Positions 20,463 through 28,945 of a stretch of DNA of 36,914 bases are shown piece by piece. The position numbers were made by a program, and so were the translations under genes. This DNA comes from Hydrogenobacter sp. (lineage in GTDB: Bacteria > Aquificota > Aquificia > Aquificales > Aquificaceae): assembly GCA_041287335.1 (NCBI GenBank), contig JBEULM010000023.1, forward strand, positions 1 through 36,914. Reading direction: 5' to 3'. Below the pieces are notes generated by a model. That model made no database searches. It was not told the origin of the DNA and saw only the letters and a list, made by a program, of their open reading frames with translations. Each line of letters starts with the position of its first letter. The first letter of the stretch is position 1.

Positions 20463-20534
20463 AGGCGCGTAGCTCAGTGGGAGAGCGCCGCCCTTACAAG
20501 GCGGAGGTCGGGGGTTCAAGTCCCCCCGTGCCTA
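20463..20534 (+). tRNA. tRNA-Val (anticodon TAC)
   Basis: Acceptor AGGCGCG/CGTGCCT with one G-T pair, D arm GCTC/GAGC, anticodon stem CCGCC/GGCGG with loop CTTACAA, and T arm GGGGGTTCAAGTCCCCC. Discriminator A. The 3' half is the integration target of the decayed element to its right. Confidence 0.95.
20500..20524 (+). repeat. Left attachment repeat (tRNA-Val 3' end)
   Basis: 25 bases covering the anticodon 3' stem, variable loop and T arm of tRNA-Val, identical to 22891-22915. A further 8-base match (CCCTTACA, 20491-20498 and 22883-22890) precedes both, with one A deleted in the right copy. Confidence 0.8.
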
Positions 20535-20540
20535 TTTTAA

Positions 20541-20913
20541 ACCCTTGCCTTTCAAAGCCTTGAAAATAGCCCCTTTTAAAAGCCTTGTCTTTCAATGGAA
20601 AATTTCCAAAGCCTTGTCAGTCAATAACTTGAATAGCCCACTATGACCCATTATGACCCACTAAATTACATCCAATCTTTAACCTTTCTTTAACACTTCT
20701 GAGCCTTGTCTATCAAGCACTTGAAGAGGGTTTAATTTAACATGTTAAAAGAAATGGCAGGAAAGCCCTGTCAGTAAAGGCTCAGGTGGTCTTTTAGGTG
20801 TTAAAAGCCTATGACCCGCCCGCAGGTGTTAAAAGAATATGCCTTAAAGCCTTGCCAGTAAAGGCTTGGAAGGGTTTTAACCTGTTAAAAAGCATAAAAG
20901 CCCTGTCTTTCAA
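20541..20913 (+). repeat. Seven degenerate 15-bp direct repeats (iteron-like)
   Basis: Consensus AGCCYTGYCNNTMAA. Copies start at 20541, 20581, 20610, 20702, 20764, 20848 and 20899. Spacing is irregular (29-92 bases), so this is not a CRISPR array. In several copies the unit continues as TCAA-N4-TTGA, giving a small dyad (after copies 1, 3 and 4). They fill the otherwise gene-free stretch 20535-20970 together with GTTAAAA half-sites and TATGACCC repeats. Such dense repeats next to attachment sites suggest a replication origin or recombinase/regulator binding region of the element. Confidence 0.65.
20736..20890. promoter_or_regulatory. Two perfect GTTAAA palindromes plus half-sites
   Basis: TTTAACATGTTAAA (20736-20749) and TTTTAACCTGTTAAAA (20875-20890) are perfect dyads sharing the GTTAAA half-site. 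Single half-sites GTTAAAA occur between them (near 20788 and 20828) and elsewhere in the element (near 21274 and 22839). The spacing within the dyad (2 bases) is constant, which fits a dimeric DNA-binding protein. The binding protein is not identified. Confidence 0.5.
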
Positions 20914-20970
20914 GCCTTTGACTGGTTTTAACTGCCTTAATGCTTTAACCTGTATAATGGAGTTAATACC

Positions 20971-21219
20971 CTAACCCTTACCCATCAACTCATCAAACAC
21001 ATGGCTTATGGCTATCCTGAGCCGTTCCTTTCTTTCTTCCTTTGTCATAGCTTGGTATTCTTTAAGGCTCTTGTGAAGTAGCTGGAGGGTTTGCCTCTTG
21101 GCGTCTTCAGGTAAATCACTTGCCATTATCTTCTGTGTTTGGTTTGTAAATAGGTTATTCACAAAAACCACCACATATACTTCTATGCAGTCCGCTTTTA
21201 GCAGTGCAATGATGCCCAT
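20971..21219 (-). CDS. Small hypothetical protein of the element
   Basis: 82 residues if started at 21219, or about 51 if started at the internal Met (21126). The C-terminal part (ASDLPEDAKRQTLQLLHKSLKEYQAMTKEERKE and on) is strongly helical and charged. The N-terminal part is less convincing. It points away from the other element genes. No family recognised, and it is uncertain that it is expressed. Confidence 0.35.
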   Translation of the reverse strand: MGIIALLKADCIEVYVVVFVNNLFTNQTQKIMASDLPEDAKRQTLQLLHKSLKEYQAMTKEERKERLRIAISHVFDELMGKG

Positions 21220-21317
21220 GGCTTACCCTTCTTTAAGGGTTTTTGCGGGTATAAACACAATCACTCTTCATAAAGATGTTAAAAGTTTTTTATTCTAAGT
21301 TAAACCGCTTGGTGATG

Positions 21318-21331
21318 TATATTTACATGTA
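21318..21331 (+). promoter_or_regulatory. -10 box and overlapping palindrome at the start of the small DNA-binding gene
   Basis: TATATT (21318-21323) is followed by the 8-base palindrome TACATGTA (21324-21331), which reaches into the ATG at 21331. A palindrome between -10 and start codon is a natural autorepressor site, and the gene it precedes could encode a small DNA-binding protein. No Shine-Dalgarno is present. Confidence 0.4.
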
Positions 21332-21525
21332 TGGCAAGAGAAAGGTCAGGGTTTAAAGCATTAAGCCCTCGGACACTCCCAGAAAAAACTCAGATAAGAC
21401 TGCACAAGGAATTGATGGAATGGCTAAAAGCCAAAGCCCGCAAAGAAGCCAAGAGCCTGAGCCTCGTCCTCACTGAAATACTTGAAAAAGCTAAGCAGAG
21501 AAAGGAAGCCCAAGGTGGTAAGTAA
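21331..21525 (+). CDS. Small basic protein, possible ribbon-helix-helix DNA-binding protein
   Basis: 64 residues, Lys/Arg-rich. A short strand-like LPEKTQIRLHKELMEWLKAKAR and a second helix SLSLVLTEILEKAKQR give the strand-helix-helix layout of Arc/CopG proteins. It is first of a rightward series of small element genes and overlaps the next start by 1-3 bases (TAATG). Likely regulator of the element; the assignment rests on pattern only. Confidence 0.5.
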   Translation: MARERSGFKALSPRTLPEKTQIRLHKELMEWLKAKARKEAKSLSLVLTEILEKAKQRKEAQGGK

Positions 21526-21725
21526 TGGAAGGGCTAAAGAAAAGGCTTGAGATTGAGCAGGACAGATTTAAGGTCTTTCTGTCCCTTGCTTCAGTGGTAG
21601 TTGGTGGTTTTGTAGGGCTTCTTTTTAGGGAAAGGGATGCTATTACTACCACCCTTATGTTTCTTGGCTTAATTGTTGCCCTGTTTAGCTTTGGTCTTGC
21701 TATCAAGTCTTTTTTTCAAGGTTAA
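21525..21725 (+). CDS. Small two-helix membrane protein
   Basis: 66 residues: a charged N-terminus (EGLKKRLEIEQDRFK), then two hydrophobic helices (FLSLASVVVGGFVGLLF and TTTLMFLGLIVALFSFGLAI) separated by RERDA. The layout resembles the protein at 21905, so the two may be diverged duplicates. It starts on the stop codon of the preceding gene. No family recognised. Confidence 0.5.
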   Translation: MEGLKKRLEIEQDRFKVFLSLASVVVGGFVGLLFRERDAITTTLMFLGLIVALFSFGLAIKSFFQG

Positions 21726-21760
21726 TAGGCTTTTGAAGCTTTTAGAGGAGGTGGATAAAA

Positions 21761-21892
21761 ATGTTTGAGATAATCATGACCTTAATCTTAGGTGCCATCG
21801 TCATTATATCACTTGGCATAATGCTTTATGAAGAAATGAAGCCCCTGCCCTATGAGAAGGACAAAAAGCCCCAGACTAATAAGCCATCATGA
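21761..21892 (+). CDS. Very small single-helix membrane protein
   Basis: 43 residues, with a strong ribosome binding site (GAGGAGGTGG at 21745-21754). One hydrophobic helix (IIMTLILGAIVIISLGIMLY) is followed by a charged, Pro/Lys-rich tail (EEMKPLPYEKDKKPQ). The good ribosome binding site and clean start and stop favour a real gene. Function unknown; the shape would suit a small toxin, a holin-like or a phage-type membrane protein. Confidence 0.5.
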   Translation: MFEIIMTLILGAIVIISLGIMLYEEMKPLPYEKDKKPQTNKPS

Positions 21893-21904
21893 GAGGTTCT
21901 AAAC

Positions 21905-22117
21905 ATGGACAGCAAGGAAGAGGTTAAGGAGCTAATAGCCTATTACAAGCACCTGTTTAGCCATGTCTGGAATGCCTTTCTTTTACTGACTGGTGGCTTG
22001 GCTGGTCTGGTTTTTAAATGGGACAGCTTGGTGGCTAAGGTTGTTTTCTTTATGGGTGGTGTCTGGTGGATGCTCTTATTCTCTTTGAGCCTTGTCTTAG
22101 AAACCACTTGCTTGTAA
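21905..22117 (+). CDS. Small two-helix membrane protein
   Basis: 70 residues: an acidic and basic N-terminal helix (SKEEVKELIAYYKHLFSHVW), then two hydrophobic helices (AFLLLTGGLAGLVF and VVFFMGGVWWMLLFSLSLVL). It resembles the 21525 protein in layout. It lies 12 bases after the previous small gene, in the same direction. No family recognised. Confidence 0.5.
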   Translation: MDSKEEVKELIAYYKHLFSHVWNAFLLLTGGLAGLVFKWDSLVAKVVFFMGGVWWMLLFSLSLVLETTCL

Positions 22118-22147
22118 GAACCAGAAGACTAATAAGGAGGTTATAAC

Positions 22148-22255
22148 ATGGATGTAAAGGTTGCCCTTGTGGTATTGGTTATATTGACCGTTATCTTTGT
22201 GGTAGGCTTTGCATATATAGGATACAGCATATGGAAAGATGAGCCTAAGGGTTAA
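22148..22255 (+). CDS. Very small single-helix membrane protein
   Basis: 35 residues behind AAGGAGG: VKVALVVLVILTVIFVVGFAYIGY spans the membrane, followed by a short charged tail. It is the fourth small membrane protein of the element. The consistent ribosome binding sites suggest these are real genes. Function unknown. Confidence 0.45.
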   Translation: MDVKVALVVLVILTVIFVVGFAYIGYSIWKDEPKG

Positions 22256-22314
22256 GGCTTTTTCCTATGGGTTTAACTCCATTCATGGCTCAGGACAGGC
22301 AAAGGAGTTAAGGT

Positions 22315-22790
22315 ATGGCAGGCAAAAAGAAGGGTAAAGTAGCCTACGGTGATAACCTTTATGAAATTCATGGCTCATACTGGCTAATATTTACCCATCA
22401 TGACAAGACCTACACAGAAAGGATTGGAAGGGTCAAAGACCTGCCCCTCACTATGGCAAGGAATATAGCAGTAAAGAGAAAGGCAGAGATAATTGAAGGC
22501 ACTTATTTACCTAAGAAAGAGGAAAACCTGACCTTTGAGGAGCTTGCTAAGGAATATTTAAGCTGGTATAAATCCACACGCCCGCAGGTGAGGAAAAGAA
22601 CCCTTTACGATTTGGAAAAGAGGATTGACAGGCTTGTGGGCTACTTTGGAGGTATGCAGGTTCACCAGATAAGCACCTTACAAGGCACAAATCCACCGCT
22701 ATGCTAAAGAGGTATGCCCACCTAAGCCCTGAGCATTTCAGAAAGGCTTTGGAAAGGCTTGGCAAGTTTATGGAAGAAGGCAGTAAGTAG
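22315..22790 (+). pseudogene. Tyrosine integrase with its catalytic core deleted
   Basis: The first about 120 residues (from 22315) give an intact arm-binding and core-binding region (YEIHGSYWLIFTHHDKTY ... LTFEELAKEYLSWYKST ... DRLVGYFGGMQVHQIST). Near 22680 the frame shifts. A second frame from about 22680 to 22790 encodes the last about 37 residues of the same family: RHKSTAMLKRYAHLSPEH, with the catalytic His region and the Tyr nucleophile in RYAHLSP. Roughly 130-150 residues between them, including the catalytic Arg-Lys-HxxR part, are missing. The gene is therefore an internal deletion with frame change, not a simple truncation. It adjoins the right attachment repeat, as integrases usually do. 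Confidence 0.85.
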
Positions 22791-22890
22791 GCTTCAATCC
22801 AGCTTTTAACCTGTCTTTAACATTTGACTACCCACCTTGTTAAAAACTTTGAAACTCAAGGCTTTTAGAATGCAAAACGTCACCCTTACA

Positions 22891-22915
22891 GGCGGAGGTC
22901 GGGGGTTCAAGTCCC
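22891..22915 (+). repeat. Right attachment repeat (tRNA-Val copy)
   Basis: Identical over 25 bases to 20500-20524. After 22915 the similarity to tRNA-Val stops (GCCCCTGC instead of CCCGTGCC), so the copy has no complete acceptor stem and is not a working tRNA gene. The adjacent stretch 22791-22882 has no gene but shares TTTAACCTnTCTTTAACA-type sequence with 20676-20696 at the other end. Confidence 0.75.
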
Positions 22916-22929
22916 GCCCCTGCAAAATC

Positions 22930-23553
22930 CTAAAATAAAAGTCTTATCTTGTCTTCTCTTAGGTTTTCAGCCAATAGCACTAGGCTTTTAAACTCTTCTA
23001 AGTAGTCCAATAAATACATATTCTTGTTTATCAACTCTTTAGCCTTCTCTAAGTTTAAAGAACCGCTTTTTATTAGAAAAGTCACATCCAAGTAGTCCTT
23101 CCCTCTACCAGCGAAGAGCTTTGAAACAACAAGATACTCAGGAGCTATGACCCTCAACTTAACCTTTAACCTGCTCAGCTCAAAAACCAGGGAAGACTTT
23201 AAGGCTTTCTTCTCCCAGCCACTTTCAACAAGACCTATATCTACATGCTGTCCATCTTTTTCAAAAATAAGCCAGCCATTGCTTCTTAAAAGCCTAAAAC
23301 CGTGACCTTTTAGTTCCTCAGTTAAAGGTTTTACCTGCGAAGATAGGACTTTAAAGTCTATATCCTGAGGAGTGGGCTTTCTTATACCTTTAGAGTACAA
23401 AGCTATTGCCCATCCACCCACTAACATACCCTTATAACTTTCAATCACATATAGAGCCTCTTTTATAACTTCCGCTTCCCTCTCTTTGCATTCCTGCAAA
23501 AACCTCTCAAAAAGGCTTTCTATATCAATAGCTCCAGGCTTCAACTTCTTCAT
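22930..23553 (-). CDS. Nucleotidyltransferase-like protein (AbiEii/MNT-type fold)
   Basis: 207 residues. VGGWAIALYSKG...TPQDIDFKV (about 52-74) is the GG-x-DxD signature of polymerase-beta-type nucleotidyltransferases; a third acid may be the Asp in GQHVDIGL. FAGRGKDYLDVTFLIKSG (about 155-172) matches the KDxxD motif of AbiEii/DUF6036-like proteins, many of which are toxins of toxin-antitoxin or abortive-infection pairs. The gene is the last of a leftward cassette and overlaps the upstream paralogue gene by 29 bases, so translation is coupled. A usual AbiEi-type antitoxin is not present. Confidence 0.7.
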   Translation of the reverse strand: MKKLKPGAIDIESLFERFLQECKEREAEVIKEALYVIESYKGMLVGGWAIALYSKGIRKPTPQDIDFKVLSSQVKPLTEELKGHGFRLLRSNGWLIFEKDGQHVDIGLVESGWEKKALKSSLVFELSRLKVKLRVIAPEYLVVSKLFAGRGKDYLDVTFLIKSGSLNLEKAKELINKNMYLLDYLEEFKSLVLLAENLREDKIRLLF

Positions 23554-24094
23554 AATTATGATACTCTATTTTTGGTTTTACTATCCATGCATCCTTGCAC
23601 AACCAGATATATTCATACCTTTTAAAGTCATGCAAACTGCCACGCAGACAGAGTTTTTTAGCATACCCCCTATGAACAAGGTAGCCCCACTGGTCATAAG
23701 CGTAAGCCCATCGCTCTATGTATATTTCAAGCCTCCTATAGTCATGCCTTTCGTAGCTTTTTTTTCCAGCAAAGTTCCTACCAGGAAGTATCAAAAGACA
23801 AATATCCTGTAGCTCCTCTTGAGGCACGCTCAACTCTCCACCCCTGACAATCCTGATACCTCCCTTCAACGAAAACTTTAGAGGCTTTGCTATGTAGCCA
23901 GCAAGCTTTACAGACCTTATTAGCCTTTCTATCCTCCTTTTCCTCCACGCATAAAACAGCTCCTTTGCCCTTTTTATGGCTTTTGTGTCAGGCTCATACA
24001 GAAAAATCCAGCCAAAGCCTACTCCAGTGATTCCAAAAGGCACACCCATTCTGAGATACTTATACAGGTTTATTCCTGCGAGAAATTCTAACAT
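23525..24094 (-). CDS. Unknown protein, short paralogue of the upstream gene
   Basis: 189 residues. It aligns with residues about 50-235 of the 360-residue protein next to it: VPFGITGVGFGWI with HPFGIISAEVGWT, RLIRSVKLAGYIAKPLKF with KLIKDIRKAGYVAKPLIR, LLILPGRNFAGKK with FVVLPGKAYRKKR, and YRRLEIYIERWAYAYDQWGYLVHRG with YERLQEFLQKWAYEYDQKSYVIYRG. It lacks the N-terminal and C-terminal extensions. No known family is recognised; it is rich in Tyr, Trp and Arg. The start has GGAGGAGG upstream, inside the end of the preceding gene. Confidence 0.7.
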   Translation of the reverse strand: MLEFLAGINLYKYLRMGVPFGITGVGFGWIFLYEPDTKAIKRAKELFYAWRKRRIERLIRSVKLAGYIAKPLKFSLKGGIRIVRGGELSVPQEELQDICLLILPGRNFAGKKSYERHDYRRLEIYIERWAYAYDQWGYLVHRGYAKKLCLRGSLHDFKRYEYIWLCKDAWIVKPKIEYHNYEEVEAWSY

Positions 24095-24096
24095 AC

Positions 24097-25179
24097 TTAA
24101 GCCTCCTCCGAGAGCTTATGCCTTTTTTCTAAGAGTTTTACCAAGTCTTCTTCATACTCATAGCCTTCCCAAAAGTTTATGTATCCATCCAGCTTACCGC
24201 TTAGGTAATGCATGGCTTGCACCACATCTTTGCCAAGCCCTCTCCTCAAATAGGCTATTCGCAGAGCTTCCATGCCAGCAAGAGGTATATCGTAAAAGGT
24301 GGCAAAAACATAGAGCTTCTTCTCAAGTTTTATAACCAAGTCATAATTGGAACTTACTGAATCCATCTTTAAAAAGTATCCTCTACAACCTTCAAGACCC
24401 TTAGACTTTGGCATGCTACTCAGGTATAGGACTATGTCTGGAGCTTCTTCTTTTTCTTTCTTGTCGGGTATTATATACTCCCACTCCTTCCAAAGTCTAT
24501 AAGCACACCTTTTATAGTTAAGGTATTCTATCCAAGTTTGATATCCAACCGCTAACTGCACGAGCCTTCTACCTTCTAAGGGTCTATAGACCTTATAGAG
24601 GCACACCTTATTTTGGTCTCCCCTGTATATAACATAGCTTTTTTGGTCGTATTCATAAGCCCATTTTTGGAGAAACTCCTGTAGCCTTTCATAGTCTTGG
24701 TTTTTATACTCTCCCCTTTTCTTTCTGTAGGCTTTTCCAGGAAGCACCACGAAGTAAAACTCAGGCACGTATATAAGCCAGCCCAACTCCTTGTTTTTAA
24801 CTACATAATTTAGACCAAACCTTATAAGAGGCTTTGCCACATATCCAGCTTTTCTTATGTCCTTTATGAGCTTTATAGTTCTTTCTCTGTTAAAACTCTT
24901 TAGCTTGTTGCTTACAGCCTTTGCTATCTTTTCACCTTCTGTACTTTCTTCCTTTAAGAGGTTTGTAATAGTCCAACCCACCTCTGCGCTTATGATGCCG
25001 AAGGGATGCCCATCTATAAGATGGCGGAGTAGATTCCCATAACCTACCTCGCTTATGACCGTGAGCCCAGAAAGTATAGGAATCCATACTCTGTACTGCC
25101 CCTTTTCTAAAAGACCTTCCATAACCTTGTCAATCTCCGACAGGACTACATTAAGCCCCCTCTCAAACTCTTCAGGCAT
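24097..25179 (-). CDS. Unknown 360-residue protein of a four-gene cassette
   Basis: Three parts: an N-terminal about 45 residues, a central region (about 48-235) shared with the downstream 189-residue paralogue, and a C-terminal region (about 240-360) with DIVLYLSSMPKSKG, KLEKKLYVFATFYDIPLAGMEALRIAYLRRG and an acidic/aromatic end. No catalytic signature is evident, no signal peptide, and no clear membrane helix. Ribosome binding site AAAGGAGGTGG is strong. It lies 57 bases after the acidic protein gene and 2 bases before its paralogue. The set may be an accessory cargo beside the tRNA-Val element. Confidence 0.7.
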   Translation of the reverse strand: MPEEFERGLNVVLSEIDKVMEGLLEKGQYRVWIPILSGLTVISEVGYGNLLRHLIDGHPFGIISAEVGWTITNLLKEESTEGEKIAKAVSNKLKSFNRERTIKLIKDIRKAGYVAKPLIRFGLNYVVKNKELGWLIYVPEFYFVVLPGKAYRKKRGEYKNQDYERLQEFLQKWAYEYDQKSYVIYRGDQNKVCLYKVYRPLEGRRLVQLAVGYQTWIEYLNYKRCAYRLWKEWEYIIPDKKEKEEAPDIVLYLSSMPKSKGLEGCRGYFLKMDSVSSNYDLVIKLEKKLYVFATFYDIPLAGMEALRIAYLRRGLGKDVVQAMHYLSGKLDGYINFWEGYEYEEDLVKLLEKRHKLSEEA

Positions 25180-25236
25180 AATACCACCTCCTTTTAAAGA
25201 TTTTTAAGGCTTATTAAAAGGTTTTACCCTAACTTT

Positions 25237-25599
25237 TTAACGCATCTCCCCTTTTATTAACCTGCTGTATAGCCTGTAGGCTTGCCTGTAGGCTTGTGGG
25301 TCTTCCTCAGCAGTAAAAACTAACGCACCCTTTATCTCTTCCTCCTCATCGTCAAAGTAAAAGCCTTCAAAGGCTATAAGAACAGCCTCATCATCTGCAT
25401 CTACGAAGGCTACCTTTGAAGGATTTATAAAATATCGGATATCGTCATTATCAATAAGCCAAAAATGGTCAGATATTTCTATATCTTCCTCTATTTCTAT
25501 GGCATTTTCCTCGTAGTAGCCACCAAAGTAGGCAAGCGTTAAATCTTCCCTCCTGTCTTGCTCTATCAGGGTTGCTATGGAGAGGTTTATGTACTTCAT
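25237..25599 (-). CDS. Small, very acidic hypothetical protein
   Basis: 120 residues, of which about 30 are Asp or Glu against about 10 Lys or Arg. Acidic clusters IEIEEDIEISDHF, DADDEAV and FDDEEEEIKG alternate with aromatic and hydrophobic strands. Such composition is found in DNA-mimic inhibitors and in some antitoxins, but no family is recognised. It is the first gene of the leftward cassette, with GAGGT before the ATG, a TATACT box at 25618-25613 and a dyad near -60. Confidence 0.65.
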   Translation of the reverse strand: MKYINLSIATLIEQDRREDLTLAYFGGYYEENAIEIEEDIEISDHFWLIDNDDIRYFINPSKVAFVDADDEAVLIAFEGFYFDDEEEEIKGALVFTAEEDPQAYRQAYRLYSRLIKGEMR

Positions 25600-25658
25600 G
25601 TGCTAACCTCAAAGTATATTTTGTGTTTTTTAATTTATACCTAATTTTATTTTTGACA

Positions 25659-25672
25659 ATGATTTAGATCAT
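25659..25672. promoter_or_regulatory. CRP/FNR-type dyad upstream of the acidic gene
   Basis: ATGAT-TTAG-ATCAT, containing the TGAT-N4-ATCA core used by the CRP/FNR family. With the -10 box TATACT at 25618-25613 and a start near 25606, its centre is about 60 bases upstream, the class I activator position. It is the only notable element in the gap 25600-25732. Confidence 0.4.
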
Positions 25673-25732: not shown

Positions 25733-26527
25733 CTATGGTTCCCCGTGCCTGCTTAAAATCCGTTTATTTTCGTGTCTCAAATATTCCATAATAAGGAGTA
25801 AGACAAAAACGAATAACTCCACCAAAGAAGAGGTGAGTCTATCTAAAGCAAGCCCATGCATACTGTGTGGCTTTGTCAGGAGATCCCCAAAGGTTGCTCC
25901 AAAGGGTCTGGTAAAAATGAAAGCTACCCAGAACAGCAAAGTCTTATTTAGTTTTGTAAAGTGATGTAATAAAAACACAAAGATTATTACTAAACTTGTA
26001 GCTATAGCCCCTTCTATGTAGCTGAGACCTATATTATCCGTAAGAAAGTCTCCAAAAGCAGTCCCCAAGCTATTAGAGAAAACCACCGCTGTCCAGAAGA
26101 ATACCTCCTTTAGTGGTTCGTTCATTGGGCGGATGTTTATCGTTTTATATCTCATGTACCACACAAAAAGCGTCAAGAAAAGACCCGCAGAAAGTATGAG
26201 GCTTCCCAAAAGGTATCCAAGTCCAAAGGTTCTATCCATGGCATCTGAAATTTCCGTTCCCATCACAGTAGTAGAAGCTATGGAAAACCAGAAAATGGGC
26301 GGACTGTAAGTCTTTGAGTATAGCTGTAAAACTAAAAGTGTCACAAAAATTACAAAGCTTATAAAGAAGCTATGCACATATCCCAATCCTAAACTCATAG
26401 ATAGGAAATCTCCGAAGGTCTCGCCAAGGGTAGTGGCTACGATTTTCAAAAGCCAAAAAAGTAAAGTGATCTCCGGTATTTTGCTCAATAGCCATTCATC
26501 CTTTTCCACAGCTTCAAATACCTTCAT
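25733..26527 (-). CDS. Multi-spanning membrane protein with four internal repeats (COG4705 type)
   Basis: 264 residues, about eight membrane segments. A four-fold repeat is plain: TTLGETFGDFLSMSLGLGY, TVMGTEISDAMDRTFGLGY, NSLGTAFGDFLTDNIGLSY and RPFGATFGDLLTKPHSMHG. Each has an acidic residue (GDxL or SDxM) in the membrane, suggesting a cation path or binding site. The opening KIPEITLLFWLLKIVATTLGE is typical of this uncharacterised family. It is last in a leftward row with a PepSY protein and a two-component system, which suggests a stress- or metal-responsive transporter. Confidence 0.7.
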   Translation of the reverse strand: MKVFEAVEKDEWLLSKIPEITLLFWLLKIVATTLGETFGDFLSMSLGLGYVHSFFISFVIFVTLLVLQLYSKTYSPPIFWFSIASTTVMGTEISDAMDRTFGLGYLLGSLILSAGLFLTLFVWYMRYKTINIRPMNEPLKEVFFWTAVVFSNSLGTAFGDFLTDNIGLSYIEGAIATSLVIIFVFLLHHFTKLNKTLLFWVAFIFTRPFGATFGDLLTKPHSMHGLALDRLTSSLVELFVFVLLLIMEYLRHENKRILSRHGEP

Positions 26528-26615
26528 GGCTAAACCTCCTGACGTTTATAGAGGCATAAAGGAAGCCTGCCCTTCTGCCTATAACTCTCCTCAAGTGGTG
26601 CGTTTCCCTTAGCTT

Positions 26616-26909
26616 TTAATCTTCTTCCTCTTCTTCCTTTTCCACCTTTAGCACCTTGCCCGTGTTGGCGTCTACCTTTACATCGTACTCTTCCGCATCT
26701 TTTATAAGCTTGACGCCATAGACCAGCCTTCCGTCCTCATCCTCAAGCTCGTAGCCTAAAACATCACCACCTACTTGGCTCTTTGCAGAACTTGTCGCTT
26801 CCTGAGGGCTTATCTTAGCCTGCTTAGGGTTTGGTAGCGTGTTTTCAATCTCTGCAATGGCAAGCGTAAAGCCTGCTAAAAGTCCTCCTAAAAGTAGGAG
26901 CTTCTTCAT
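26616..26909 (-). CDS. Periplasmic PepSY-domain protein
   Basis: 97 residues. Signal peptide about 1-19, then a single PepSY domain: ISPQEATSSAKSQVGGDVLGYELEDEDGRLVYGVKLI...YDVKVDANTGKVLKVE, ending in a very acidic tail. PepSY proteins often accompany two-component systems and may bind metal or inhibit proteases. Strong ribosome binding site AAGGAGGTG. A row of response-regulator-like half-sites lies about 50-90 bases upstream. Confidence 0.85.
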   Translation of the reverse strand: MKKLLLLGGLLAGFTLAIAEIENTLPNPKQAKISPQEATSSAKSQVGGDVLGYELEDEDGRLVYGVKLIKDAEEYDVKVDANTGKVLKVEKEEEEED

Positions 26910-26960
26910 GGTTGCACCTCCTTAAAGTTTTTAACCTACTATTTAGATTAGAACCAGCAC

Positions 26961-26999
26961 CTTAAGGAAATCTGAAGGTTAGCTTAACCTAAGCTGAAA
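26961..26999 (-). promoter_or_regulatory. Four direct repeats in 11-bp register (PmrA/QseB-like box)
   Basis: On the minus strand: TTTCAG-N5-GTTAAG-N5-CTTCAG-N5-CTTAAG. Each 6-base half-site recurs every 11 bases, one DNA turn, and the last is the exact PmrA half-site CTTAAG. OmpR-family regulators bind such direct repeats head to tail. The row overlaps the end of the kinase gene and stands upstream of the PepSY gene, so the regulator at 28280-28945 may control it. Confidence 0.65.
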
Positions 27000-28287
27000 A
27001 ACACACCTTTACGAGAAGACCGCCATTTCTTTTGTTTTCAAGTAAAATCTTCCACCCAAAGAGCTGTGCTATGGCTCTTGAAATGCTCAGGCCCAAGCCT
27101 GAACCTTCTTGACTCAGAACATTGGAACCTCTATAGAAAGGCTCAAAAACTTTTTCCATGTCTTCTTCTTGTATTCCAGGTCCGTTATCAGATATATATA
27201 GACAGCCTTTATTCGTAGTGATCTCAATTTTACCACCAATGGGACTATACTTTACCGCATTTTCTACAAGATTTATTAGTATGGAATAAACAAGTTCTTT
27301 GTCTGCCTCTAAAATAACATCATCAAGTTTTACGTCTACAGTAAGGTTTTTCTTGTCAATAAGGGGCAAAAGTTCATCTAAAACTTCTTCAATGAGTAAT
27401 TTTAAGTTAAAGTTTTCAAGATTGGTTTGATGGCTTTTGCTTTCAAGCCTATAAAGAAAGAGCATCTTTTCTGTAATCTTCAAAGCCTTTTCTACGGAAG
27501 CTCTTATGTTTAGAAGGAGGTTTAAAAGTTCCTCTTTTTTCCTGTTCTGTCTGAAGGCAAGATCTACCGCAGTTCTTATTACAGAAAGTGGGGTTTTTAG
27601 ATGATGTGAAAGGTGATACAGAAAAAGTCTTTGATTTTGGATATACACGTTTAATCGTTCTATAAGTTTGTTATAGGAATTAAGAAGAGGCATAAACTCA
27701 GAGGGAAGTTTTATGTTGATGGGCTTTAACTCCTCTGGCGTACTTATCTCTATGCTTTTTGCAAGCTTTCTTATATTCCGCAAAGACAGGAACCAAAGGA
27801 CGTAGGACAAAAGAAGAAACAAGATTAGAAGCAAAAACCAACCTAAGGTAAACTTTTTAAGCAAGGTGTTTTTATAGGATCGTTTTTCGCTTACGTCTCT
27901 ATAAACACCTATGGTATAACCTTCATAAGATTTTATAAAGCCTGCTATTAGTCTACCTTTCCATTCAAAGGTATAAAAGCCATAGCGTTGAGGAAAATCT
28001 AAAACATACTCATCAGGTTGAATTTCAGCTACCCTGTTTCCTTGCTTTACCAAAAGGTAATTTCCGGAACCTTTACGGAAAATTGAAAAAACTTCCTCAT
28101 CGTACTGGAAACCACCATCTTCCTGTATAAGCGAAGCTATAGACTGCCAGGAAGTCCTTAAGGACCACTCTATTTCTTCATTCAAAGTCTGTTGTAAAGT
28201 GTAGGATACAAAGACATAAAGAGATATAAAGGCTAAGGATATAAGTATAGAAAAGATAATGTAAACCCTTACAAAGAGACTATTCAT
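26989..28287 (-). CDS. Membrane sensor histidine kinase
   Basis: 432 residues. Membrane segments at about 8-29 and 150-172 enclose a periplasmic sensor of about 120 residues. A HAMP-like linker follows, then the H box HLSHHLKTPLSVIRT, the N box INLVENAVKYSP, the G1 box DNGPGIQ and the G2 box GSGLGLSISRA. It autophosphorylates and passes phosphate to the regulator encoded just upstream, with which it overlaps by 8 bases. The signal is unknown; sensors of this QseC/PmrB layout respond to metals, pH or cationic peptides. Confidence 0.92.
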   Translation of the reverse strand: MNSLFVRVYIIFSILISLAFISLYVFVSYTLQQTLNEEIEWSLRTSWQSIASLIQEDGGFQYDEEVFSIFRKGSGNYLLVKQGNRVAEIQPDEYVLDFPQRYGFYTFEWKGRLIAGFIKSYEGYTIGVYRDVSEKRSYKNTLLKKFTLGWFLLLILFLLLSYVLWFLSLRNIRKLAKSIEISTPEELKPINIKLPSEFMPLLNSYNKLIERLNVYIQNQRLFLYHLSHHLKTPLSVIRTAVDLAFRQNRKKEELLNLLLNIRASVEKALKITEKMLFLYRLESKSHQTNLENFNLKLLIEEVLDELLPLIDKKNLTVDVKLDDVILEADKELVYSILINLVENAVKYSPIGGKIEITTNKGCLYISDNGPGIQEEDMEKVFEPFYRGSNVLSQEGSGLGLSISRAIAQLFGWKILLENKRNGGLLVKVCFSA

Positions 28288-28945
28288 TACTTAAAAGATA
28301 TCCATAACCTTTTATTGTCTTTATATACTTTCCTTCTGGGTCAAGTTTTTTCCTTAACTTGCTTATTAGTACTTCTACTACGTTGCTATCTGGAAAAGCA
28401 TTCCATCCATAAAGCTGTTCATTAAGGTATGTTTTAGACAAAGGTCTGCCCAGGTTTAAAACCAATAAGGAAATTAATTTCCATTCCATGTGGGTAAGTT
28501 GTACCTCTCTATTACTTTTAAAAACACGGTGAGTGTTGAGATCTACAACTACATCAGAAAAAGAAACCCTATTTTCTAAAACACCATAAGACCTTCTTAT
28601 TAAAGCTCTTATTCTTGCAAGAAGCTCCTCAAAAGCAAAAGGCTTTGAAAGATAATCATCAGCACCTAAATCAAGACCTTTTACCTTATCTTCTGTAGCA
28701 CCTCGTGCAGTAAGTATTATTATGGGAGTTTTAATTCCATGACCTCGTGCTATTTTTAGAAGATCAAAACCGTCCCTTTTAGGAAGCATAAGGTCTAAAA
28801 TGATCACTTTATATTCTACACTTTTTATATATTCTTCCGCTGTGATTCCGTCAGAGACCCAATCTACGGTATAGCCAGCCTCTTCTAATCCTCTTTTTAT
28901 AAGTCTTCCTAAGCTTTTATCGTCTTCTACAAGGAGAAGCCTCAT
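28280..28945 (-). CDS. OmpR-family response regulator
   Basis: 221 residues. The receiver domain has acidic pocket DD at 8-9, phospho-acceptor Asp51 (VIILDLMLPKRDG) and the Lys in DYLSKPFAFEEL. The winged-helix DNA-binding domain includes LTHMEWKLISLLVLNLGRPLSKTYL and SNVVEVLISKLRKKLDPEG and GYGYLL. The PmrA/QseB-like half-sites before the PepSY gene are probable targets. It starts 9 bases after the nadC stop with no clear Shine-Dalgarno, so it may be read through from nadC or leaderless. Confidence 0.93.
   Translation of the reverse strand: MRLLLVEDDKSLGRLIKRGLEEAGYTVDWVSDGITAEEYIKSVEYKVIILDLMLPKRDGFDLLKIARGHGIKTPIIILTARGATEDKVKGLDLGADDYLSKPFAFEELLARIRALIRRSYGVLENRVSFSDVVVDLNTHRVFKSNREVQLTHMEWKLISLLVLNLGRPLSKTYLNEQLYGWNAFPDSNVVEVLISKLRKKLDPEGKYIKTIKGYGYLLSNE

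What the first reader, a model, noticed from the sequence alone, without database searches (positions are those of the whole stretch)
22930..25599. Undescribed four-gene cassette beside the tRNA-Val element
A very acidic 120-residue protein, two tandem paralogues of unknown family (360 and 189 residues) and a nucleotidyltransferase-like protein lie in one direction, with coupled overlaps, next to a tRNA integration site. The nucleotidyltransferase resembles AbiEii-type toxins but lacks the known antitoxin partner. The duplicated unknown protein could be the target, immunity or effector part of a new defence or toxin-antitoxin system.
Basis: inference. Interest (0 to 1): 0.75.

Follow-up and report, generated by a model that had tools for sequence, protein, structure and literature searches.

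The report
Nucleotidyltransferase cassette with SAM-lyase-like partner
A rare set of genes in a hot-spring bacterium pairs a toxin-like nucleotide-attaching enzyme with an undescribed partner that resembles proteins cutting the cofactor SAM, plus a strongly acidic protein; in a related bacterium the same set sits inside an anti-virus gene island, so it is probably a new kind of bacterial self-defence module.

Summary
On the minus strand lie an acidic protein (120 aa, net charge -19), two paralogues (360 and 189 aa, 35% identical, E 5e-23) and a nucleotidyltransferase. The acidic and middle proteins match no Pfam, NCBIfam, PADLOC or PHROG family. The nucleotidyltransferase is DUF6036 (PF19502), related to AbiEii but below the AbiEii cutoff. 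Among 136 Aquificota genomes, the acidic and middle genes occur together in exactly two genera, with conserved gene order and a conserved FNR-like promoter; the other genome has one middle gene. There the cassette lies between brxC-pglZ-brxL and a helicase-methylase operon (BREX-type island). All four congeners lack it. The middle protein's low-confidence AlphaFold model best matches phage T3 SAM lyase (Foldseek prob 0.98, E 0.013), with the catalytic Glu and Gln in the expected places; sequence profiles alone do not prove it. A third genome, from a distant family, has a divergent middle protein directly beside a DUF6036 nucleotidyltransferase, so the pairing recurs. Most likely this is a toxin-antitoxin/abortive-infection-type module: nucleotidyltransferase effector, PII/SAM-lyase-like regulator and acidic accessory protein. 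Chemistry, toxicity and defence are untested. The tRNA-Val element only adjoins the cassette.

The parts
25237..25599 (-). Acidic protein, 120 aa (P0004), first gene of the cassette
   Evidence: Net charge -19, pI 4.1; 71% identical to the gene at the same position of the G083 cassette; no family hit; found only in G000 and G083 among 136 Aquificota genomes
24097..25179 (-). Middle ('core') protein 1, 360 aa (P0003), with SAM-lyase/PII-like domain at about residues 47-198 and an unassigned C-terminal part
   Evidence: 35% identical to the single copy in G083; AF2 + Foldseek best PDB match is T3 SAM lyase 7ock, prob 0.98; E140 and Q179 sit at the positions of the lyase Glu and Gln
24586..25041 (-). 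SAM-lyase/PII-like domain inside core protein 1
   Evidence: beta1-alpha1-beta2-beta3-alpha2-beta4 order in the model; hhalign to phage SAM lyases, 5 of 200 shuffles as good
23525..24094 (-). Middle ('core') protein 2, 189 aa (P0002), tandem paralogue lacking the C-terminal part; Asp97 in place of the catalytic-position Glu, Gln135 kept
   Evidence: BLASTP 35%, E 5e-23 to P0003; residue positions
22930..23553 (-). DUF6036 nucleotidyltransferase, 207 aa (P0001); motifs GG46-47, D64xD66, D105, K145, D153/D156
   Evidence: PF19502 31.5 bits, cutoff 23.6; AbiEii PF08843 13.8, cutoff 22.5; motifs invariant in A4
25654..25672 (-). Cassette promoter region: palindrome ATGATCTAAATCAT joined to TTGTCA (-35-like), FNR/CRP class II geometry
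   Evidence: Upstream alignment with G083 scores 48, best of 500 shuffles 33; the same palindrome lies upstream of nuo and other host genes
22883..22923 (+). att-like copy of the tRNA-Val 3' end; boundary of the neighbouring remnant element, about 7 nt from the cassette
20463..20534 (+). tRNA-Val(tac), the other att site of the remnant element (context only)
22315..22707 (+). N-terminal remnant of the element's tyrosine integrase (context only)
   Evidence: PF14659 26.9 bits; phrog_1 integrase E 1.7e-7

Best explanation
The cassette is a rare, horizontally distributed accessory module of defence-island type, built of three functions. (1) A pol-beta-fold nucleotidyltransferase (DUF6036, sister to the AbiEii/MenT toxins) is the likely effector, probably attaching a nucleotide to a cellular target such as tRNA and so stopping growth. 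(2) The translationally coupled middle protein, with a trimeric-PII/SAM-lyase-like domain plus extra N- and C-terminal parts, is its cognate partner. It would hold the nucleotidyltransferase in check, or gate it, in response to a SAM- or adenine-nucleotide-type ligand that phage infection changes. In this genome the partner is duplicated, and the short copy lacks the catalytic-position Glu, so it is probably regulatory. (3) The slowly evolving acidic protein, first in the operon and behind a host FNR-like promoter, is an accessory or inhibitor. Shown: gene content, order, coupling, rarity, co-occurrence, conserved promoter, BREX-island location in one relative and nucleotidyltransferase motifs. 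Suggested by structure and profile evidence: the SAM-lyase-like fold. Inferred: who is toxin and who is antitoxin, the ligand, the target, horizontal spread, and antiphage function.
For: Nucleotidyltransferase: DUF6036 above cutoff; all AbiEii/MenT-type motifs present (hGG, DxD, hDh, K, KDxxD, motif definitions from PMC7205606). Unit: acidic-core-NTase order repeated in G083, with the NTase start overlapping the core stop in both genomes. Acidic and core genes co-occur in exactly the same 2 of 136 genomes. Promoter conserved between genera. Defence context: the G083 copy lies between BrxC/PglZ/BrxL and a PLD-SNF2 helicase plus type IIG methylase operon that starts 6 nt after the NTase stop. 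[quoted passage not shown] Glu and Gln sit where the lyase papers place them (PMC7877911, PMC12255297). Recurrence: in G125, from another family, a divergent core-domain protein (hhalign E 3.4e-4; score 31.6, next best unrelated ORF 23.8 of about 300) directly follows a DUF6036 NTase, beside a PLD-domain protein. DUF6036 NTases elsewhere in the phylum come in two-gene modules with varied small partners. NTase toxins are known to have unrelated antitoxins (PMC11375011).
Against: No experiment exists. The AF2 model is poor overall (mean pLDDT 44), and HMMER does not connect the core to SAM lyases; Pfam S-AdoMet_lyase (PF23780) is not hit. hhalign support is modest: 5 of 200 shuffles score as high. 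Only one of the three loci with a core homologue lies in an unmistakable BREX island. The window copy sits among housekeeping genes and a remnant element. P0007 scores best against aminoglycoside adenylyltransferase (PF10706, 24.0 bits, cutoff 21), so a small-molecule substrate is possible.
Confidence: 0.42

Rival explanations
1. Reversed roles: the SAM-lyase-like protein is the toxin, depleting SAM, and the nucleotidyltransferase is the antitoxin that AMPylates and silences it, as MntA does to HepT.
For: Nucleotidyltransferase antitoxins that adenylylate their toxin are established (HEPN/MNT, PMC7641770). P0003 and P0006 keep the Glu and Gln required for SAM lysis. The duplicated P0002 with Asp in place of Glu could be an inactive decoy.
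Against: The NTase is of the larger AbiEii/DUF6036 type rather than a minimal MNT. The G083 cassette shares an operon with a SAM-dependent methylase, an odd place for a SAM-depleting enzyme. Lyase activity is unproven.
Confidence: 0.18
2. Small-molecule signalling: the nucleotidyltransferase makes a SAM-AMP-like or other nucleotide signal and the PII/SAM-lyase-like protein binds or destroys it, a CRISPR-independent analogue of the Cas10-CorA-SAM-AMP lyase pathway.
For: The core fold search also hits SAM-AMP lyases 9gab and 9gad. A SAM-AMP lyase is encoded with the signal maker in type III CRISPR loci (PMC12255297).
Against: No CorA-like or other recognisable signal-responsive effector is in the cassette. 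The motif evidence for the NTase points to AbiEii-type enzymes. SAM-AMP lyase hits are at E 0.4-1.1 only.
Confidence: 0.08
3. Metabolic or resistance cassette: the nucleotidyltransferase modifies a small molecule (aminoglycoside-nucleotidyltransferase-like) and the other proteins are accessory; no defence role.
For: P0007 exceeds the PF10706 aminoglycoside adenylyltransferase cutoff (24.0 against 21). A host FNR-like promoter with sites shared with nuo suggests metabolic control.
Against: P0001 does not hit PF10706. The cassette is embedded in a BREX/type IIG island in G083. The NTase is translationally coupled to an orphan partner.
Confidence: 0.14
4. Counter-defence gene set: a SAM-lyase-like protein carried by mobile DNA to blunt restriction or BREX, as phage T3 SAM lyase does.
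For: Nearest structural match is an anti-restriction protein; phage SAM lyase neutralises restriction-modification and BREX (PMC12255297).
Against: In G083 it lies inside and in line with the host's own BREX/type IIG genes. It is absent from phage, plasmid and viral collections at the sensitivity used. It lies outside the att-bounded element in the window.
Confidence: 0.06
5. Unrelated neighbours: four genes that happen to lie together, with no joint function.
For: Only two complete copies are known, so conservation rests on one comparison.
Against: Same order and coupling in two genera, a conserved promoter, exact co-occurrence in 136 genomes, and the NTase/core pair again in a third genome.
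Confidence: 0.05

Closest known systems
AbiE / MenAT (AbiEii-DUF1814 nucleotidyltransferase toxin-antitoxin systems)
   Same: Pol-beta-type nucleotidyltransferase with hGG, DxD, hDh, Lys and KDxxD motifs; neighbouring coupled partner; accessory, patchy distribution; related systems give phage resistance.
   Different: Belongs to DUF6036, below the PF08843 cutoff. The partner is not AbiEi (wHTH) nor a recognised MenA family but a PII/SAM-lyase-like protein. An additional acidic protein is present. The Ser/Thr near DxD is at -3, not -2.
Phage T3 SAM lyase (SAMase, PF23780) and CorA-associated SAM-AMP lyase
   Same: Predicted PII-like ferredoxin fold, with Glu at the start of beta3 and Gln before beta4; Foldseek best match.
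   Different: No significant sequence-profile match; much longer protein (360-399 aa) with extra N- and C-terminal parts; chromosomal, coupled to a nucleotidyltransferase; one paralogue lacks the Glu.
HEPN/MNT (HepT-MntA)
   Same: Two-gene module with a nucleotidyltransferase and a partner.
   Different: No HEPN domain detected; the NTase is not a minimal nucleotidyltransferase.
Accessory effectors embedded in BREX loci (PMC12839542)
   Same: The G083 copy sits within a BREX-type island, a place where auxiliary effectors accumulate.
   Different: The passages read name HEPN-fused MNT, PIN, HNH and similar nucleases; term searches of the text found no SAM-lyase/PII-like plus NTase cassette. The window copy is not in a BREX locus.

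Membership tests
DUF6036 nucleotidyltransferases (PF19502) | Pfam gathering score reached | tested here: met
   P0001 31.5 bits, cutoff 23.6; the G083 orthologue is below (16.5), so the cassette NTases are at the family's edge
AbiEii / type IV TA toxin (PF08843) | Pfam gathering score reached | tested here: not met
   P0001 13.8, P0007 18.3, cutoff 22.5
AbiEii / type IV TA toxin (PF08843) | Catalytic motifs hGG, DxD, hDh, Lys, KDxxD | tested here: met
   Invariant in A4: G46 G47, D64 D66, D105, K145, D153, D156; motif definitions in PMC7205606
AbiEii / type IV TA toxin (PF08843) | AbiEi (COG5340, wHTH) partner adjacent | tested here: not met
   No AbiEi or wHTH hit in P0002, P0003, P0004 or the G083 counterparts
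AbiEii / type IV TA toxin (PF08843) | Toxicity neutralised by partner | not testable with these tools
   Needs expression in laboratory E. coli
SAM lyase family (PF23780) | Match to the family profile | tested here: not met
   No PF23780 hit up to E 10 for any member; own SAM-lyase HMM gives 0.8 bits for P0006
SAM lyase family (PF23780) | PII-like beta1-alpha1-beta2-beta3-alpha2-beta4 fold | tested here: inconclusive
   Model has this order and Foldseek prob 0.98 to 7ock, but mean pLDDT is 44 and E is 0.013
SAM lyase family (PF23780) | Catalytic Glu at the T-loop end and Gln in the B-loop | tested here: inconclusive
   E140/Q179 in P0003 and E162/Q200 in P0006 fit; P0002 has D97/Q135; the Gly-x-Tyr motif is only partly matched (PMC7877911)
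SAM lyase family (PF23780) | SAM cleavage to MTA and homoserine lactone | not testable with these tools
   Needs an enzyme assay
HEPN/MNT toxin-antitoxin | HEPN partner | tested here: not met
   No HEPN hit in Pfam, NCBIfam or PADLOC
BREX accessory gene set | Within or adjoining brx/pgl genes | tested here: inconclusive
   Met in G083; not in the window, where the flanking genes tested are not BREX genes

The most novel reading that the evidence does not exclude
A previously undescribed defence system in which a nucleotidyltransferase makes a SAM- or adenosine-derived nucleotide signal (or modifies its target under control of one) and a duplicated PII/SAM-lyase-like protein senses or destroys it: SAM-based immune signalling outside type III CRISPR, with an acidic accessory protein.
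Probability: 0.1. Interest if true: 0.88.

Novelty: new variant of a known kind. Interest (0 to 1): 0.56.

Why it matters
Nucleotidyltransferase toxins are widespread prokaryotic immune effectors and are known to have unrelated partners. A PII/SAM-lyase-like partner would link them to SAM or adenine-nucleotide sensing, a theme so far known from T3 anti-restriction and type III CRISPR SAM-AMP signalling. The cassette is small, thermophilic and intact, so structure and enzymology are directly feasible.

Tried and rejected
Homologue scans of genome contigs and viral contigs with core and acidic alignments, and of phages and plasmids with core, acidic and NTase proteins, found no further copies beyond the G083 record. 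tRNA intron endonuclease (PF01974, E 0.027) as the core family: rejected because only one of three members hits and far below cutoff. DUF3293 relationship (from memory): the family has no Aquificota members and could not be aligned. Direct HMMER linkage of core to SAM lyases failed; hhalign with the single T3 sequence failed; the core+X profile was no better (4 of 200 shuffles). Weak phylum hits to core (L137-L144) and acidic (RimM in G007) are chance. The acidic model is too poor for fold search. tRNA-Val element as carrier: not supported, since the cassette lies outside both att copies and no third att copy exists in the window. Compositional anomaly: none, G+C as surroundings.
Full report
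Observation. The window is an Aquificota contig (G000:C23; the phylum follows from its relative G083, whose contig is titled an Aquificota MAG). On the minus strand, in transcription order, lie an acidic 120-aa protein (P0004), a 360-aa protein (P0003), its 189-aa paralogue (P0002) and a 207-aa nucleotidyltransferase (P0001). P0003 and P0002 share 35% identity (E 5e-23). P0002 overlaps the NTase by 29 nt; P0003 and P0002 are 2 nt apart; the acidic gene is 57 nt upstream. Base composition does not differ from the surroundings.

Family searches. P0001 is a DUF6036 nucleotidyltransferase (PF19502, above cutoff) with a sub-threshold AbiEii hit. The other three proteins hit nothing convincing in Pfam, NCBIfam, PADLOC or PHROGs. 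The DUF1814/AbiEii motifs defined in PMC7205606 are present in P0001: hGG (46-47), DxD (64, 66), hDh (105), Lys145 and KDxxD (153, 156).

Distribution. In 136 Aquificota genomes the core protein is found in G000 and G083 only, and the acidic protein in exactly the same two. Weak hits elsewhere are chance. None of four congeners has the cassette; in those examined tRNA-Val is followed by other genes. No copy was found in 72,556 plasmids, 50,697 phages, IMG/VR, or 84,980 species genomes beyond the G083 record itself; the species-genome and viral scans reach only loci that match short peptide patterns.

The second copy. In G083 (JAUQQK010000008.1, an Aquificota MAG whose isolate name carries 'Tibet') the order is acidic (71% identical), core (35%, single copy), NTase (43%), with a 7-nt overlap between core stop and NTase start. 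Upstream lie BrxC, PglZ and BrxL; a PLD-SNF2 helicase starts 6 nt after the NTase stop and is followed by a type IIG-like methylase. The cassette is thus embedded in a BREX-type island. The acidic protein is far more conserved than its two neighbours, which suggests that core and NTase diversify while the acidic protein is constrained. Inference: the acidic protein touches something conserved.

Promoter. Upstream of the acidic gene both genomes keep ATGATYTAAATCAT joined to TTGTCA (alignment score 48, best of 500 shuffles 33). The palindrome also lies upstream of nuo and a few other genes in G000. Its position relative to the -35 element fits a class II FNR/CRP-type activator site (inference).

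Fold of the core protein. The AlphaFold model from three sequences is poor overall (pLDDT 44) but better over residues 50-200, and shows beta-alpha-beta-beta-alpha-beta order. The best PDB matches are two chains of T3 SAM lyase (E 0.013, prob 0.98), followed by PII proteins and SAM-AMP/SAM lyases. PII is the known structural relative of SAM lyases (PMC7877911). The lyases need a Glu at the end of the T-loop and a Gln in the B-loop. P0003 has E140 and Q179, P0006 has E162 and Q200; P0002 has D97 and Q135. The helix motif N-x-x-R-x3-[LM]-x3-[IL]-R of T3 (N27) aligns without gaps to P0003 N97. Profile comparison with 23 phage SAM lyase sequences gives hhalign score 17.9, reached by 5 of 200 column shuffles; HMMER alone does not detect the link. 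I treat the fold as probable, not proven (about 0.6).

Recurrence of the pairing. The core HMM's best non-self hit among 639 fetched ORFs is a 213-aa protein in G125 (a different family) that directly follows a DUF6036 NTase. hhalign gives E 3.4e-4, 0 of 150 shuffles, and score 31.6 against 23.8 for the next unrelated ORF. It has the same FxxF[ST]A start, Glu and Gln. Its neighbourhood holds a 664-aa protein with a PLD-like N-terminus and P-loop (read by eye as a HerA-type ATPase), a second NTase pair and an AAA ATPase. So the DUF6036 NTase and SAM-lyase-like partner occur together in at least two arrangements, in opposite gene orders.

Context of DUF6036. Thirty of 136 Aquificota genomes carry DUF6036 NTases, mostly overlapping or adjoining small unannotated partners of about 100 or 72-87 aa. 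The family therefore looks like toxin-antitoxin modules with exchangeable partners, as reported for MenT (PMC11375011).

The tRNA element. tRNA-Val (20463-20534) and a 29-nt near-perfect copy of its 3' end (22890-22918) bound 2.4 kb with a broken integrase. The cassette begins just outside. There is no third att copy in the window and no tRNA within about 9 kb of the G083 copy, so the element is a neighbour, not shown to be the carrier.

Mechanism. The best-supported view is an abortive-infection or toxin-antitoxin-type module: NTase effector, PII/SAM-lyase-like partner as regulator, acidic accessory protein. A constitutively active SAM lyase seems unlikely in an operon with a SAM-dependent methylase, which favours sensing or tightly controlled turnover. 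The reversed assignment (SAM-lyase toxin, NTase antitoxin), a SAM-nucleotide signal, and a small-molecule NTase remain open.

Verdict. It is a new variant of a known kind: a nucleotidyltransferase module with an undescribed partner.

Noticed in passing
window 20534-22923: Remnant of a tRNA-Val-integrated element: att-like repeat, N-terminal integrase fragment 22315-22707 followed in another frame by what reads as its C-terminal end, several small membrane-protein ORFs, and about 4 or more spaced copies of a 'AAAGCCTTGTCTTTCAA'-like motif at 20534-20914 (possible binding iterons).
   Followed up: partly
L105, L109, L112-L119, L123, L125, L129, L131, L132, L134: Most Aquificota DUF6036 nucleotidyltransferases overlap or adjoin one of two unannotated small partner families (about 97-107 aa '...LLSSRAGxxLLPYEI...' and 71-87 aa '...RTRPRDPxK...PPAxDILSGxxF...'), sometimes with two modules back to back; they look like uncatalogued toxin-antitoxin families.
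   Followed up: partly
L155 4605-11384 (G125:C1): Candidate defence island in another Aquificota family: PLD-like plus P-loop (HerA-like) protein, NTase with SAM-lyase-like partner, a second NTase/90-aa pair and an AAA ATPase.
   Followed up: partly
window 25659-25672; L017, L018, L019, L020: Palindrome ATGATYTAAATCAT, an FNR/CRP-like operator, occurs at about seven places in the 1.67 Mb genome with up to one mismatch (reversed-pattern control 0), including upstream of nuo genes.
   Followed up: partly
window 25733-28945: DUF347 membrane protein, PepSY protein, sensor kinase and response regulator cluster next to the cassette; in congeners only weak matches to it were found, away from tRNA-Val.
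   Followed up: partly
window 24100-24470 and L012 9870-10280: The C-terminal parts of P0003 and P0006 share a motif (PDIxxY...GM..R...AxxYLSG...WE) absent from P0002; an unassigned second domain.
   Followed up: no
L013 9721-10362 (G056): A lone NTase 37-39% identical to P0001, near a transposase-like ORF and without core or acidic genes; an orphan member of the cassette's NTase subgroup.
   Followed up: partly
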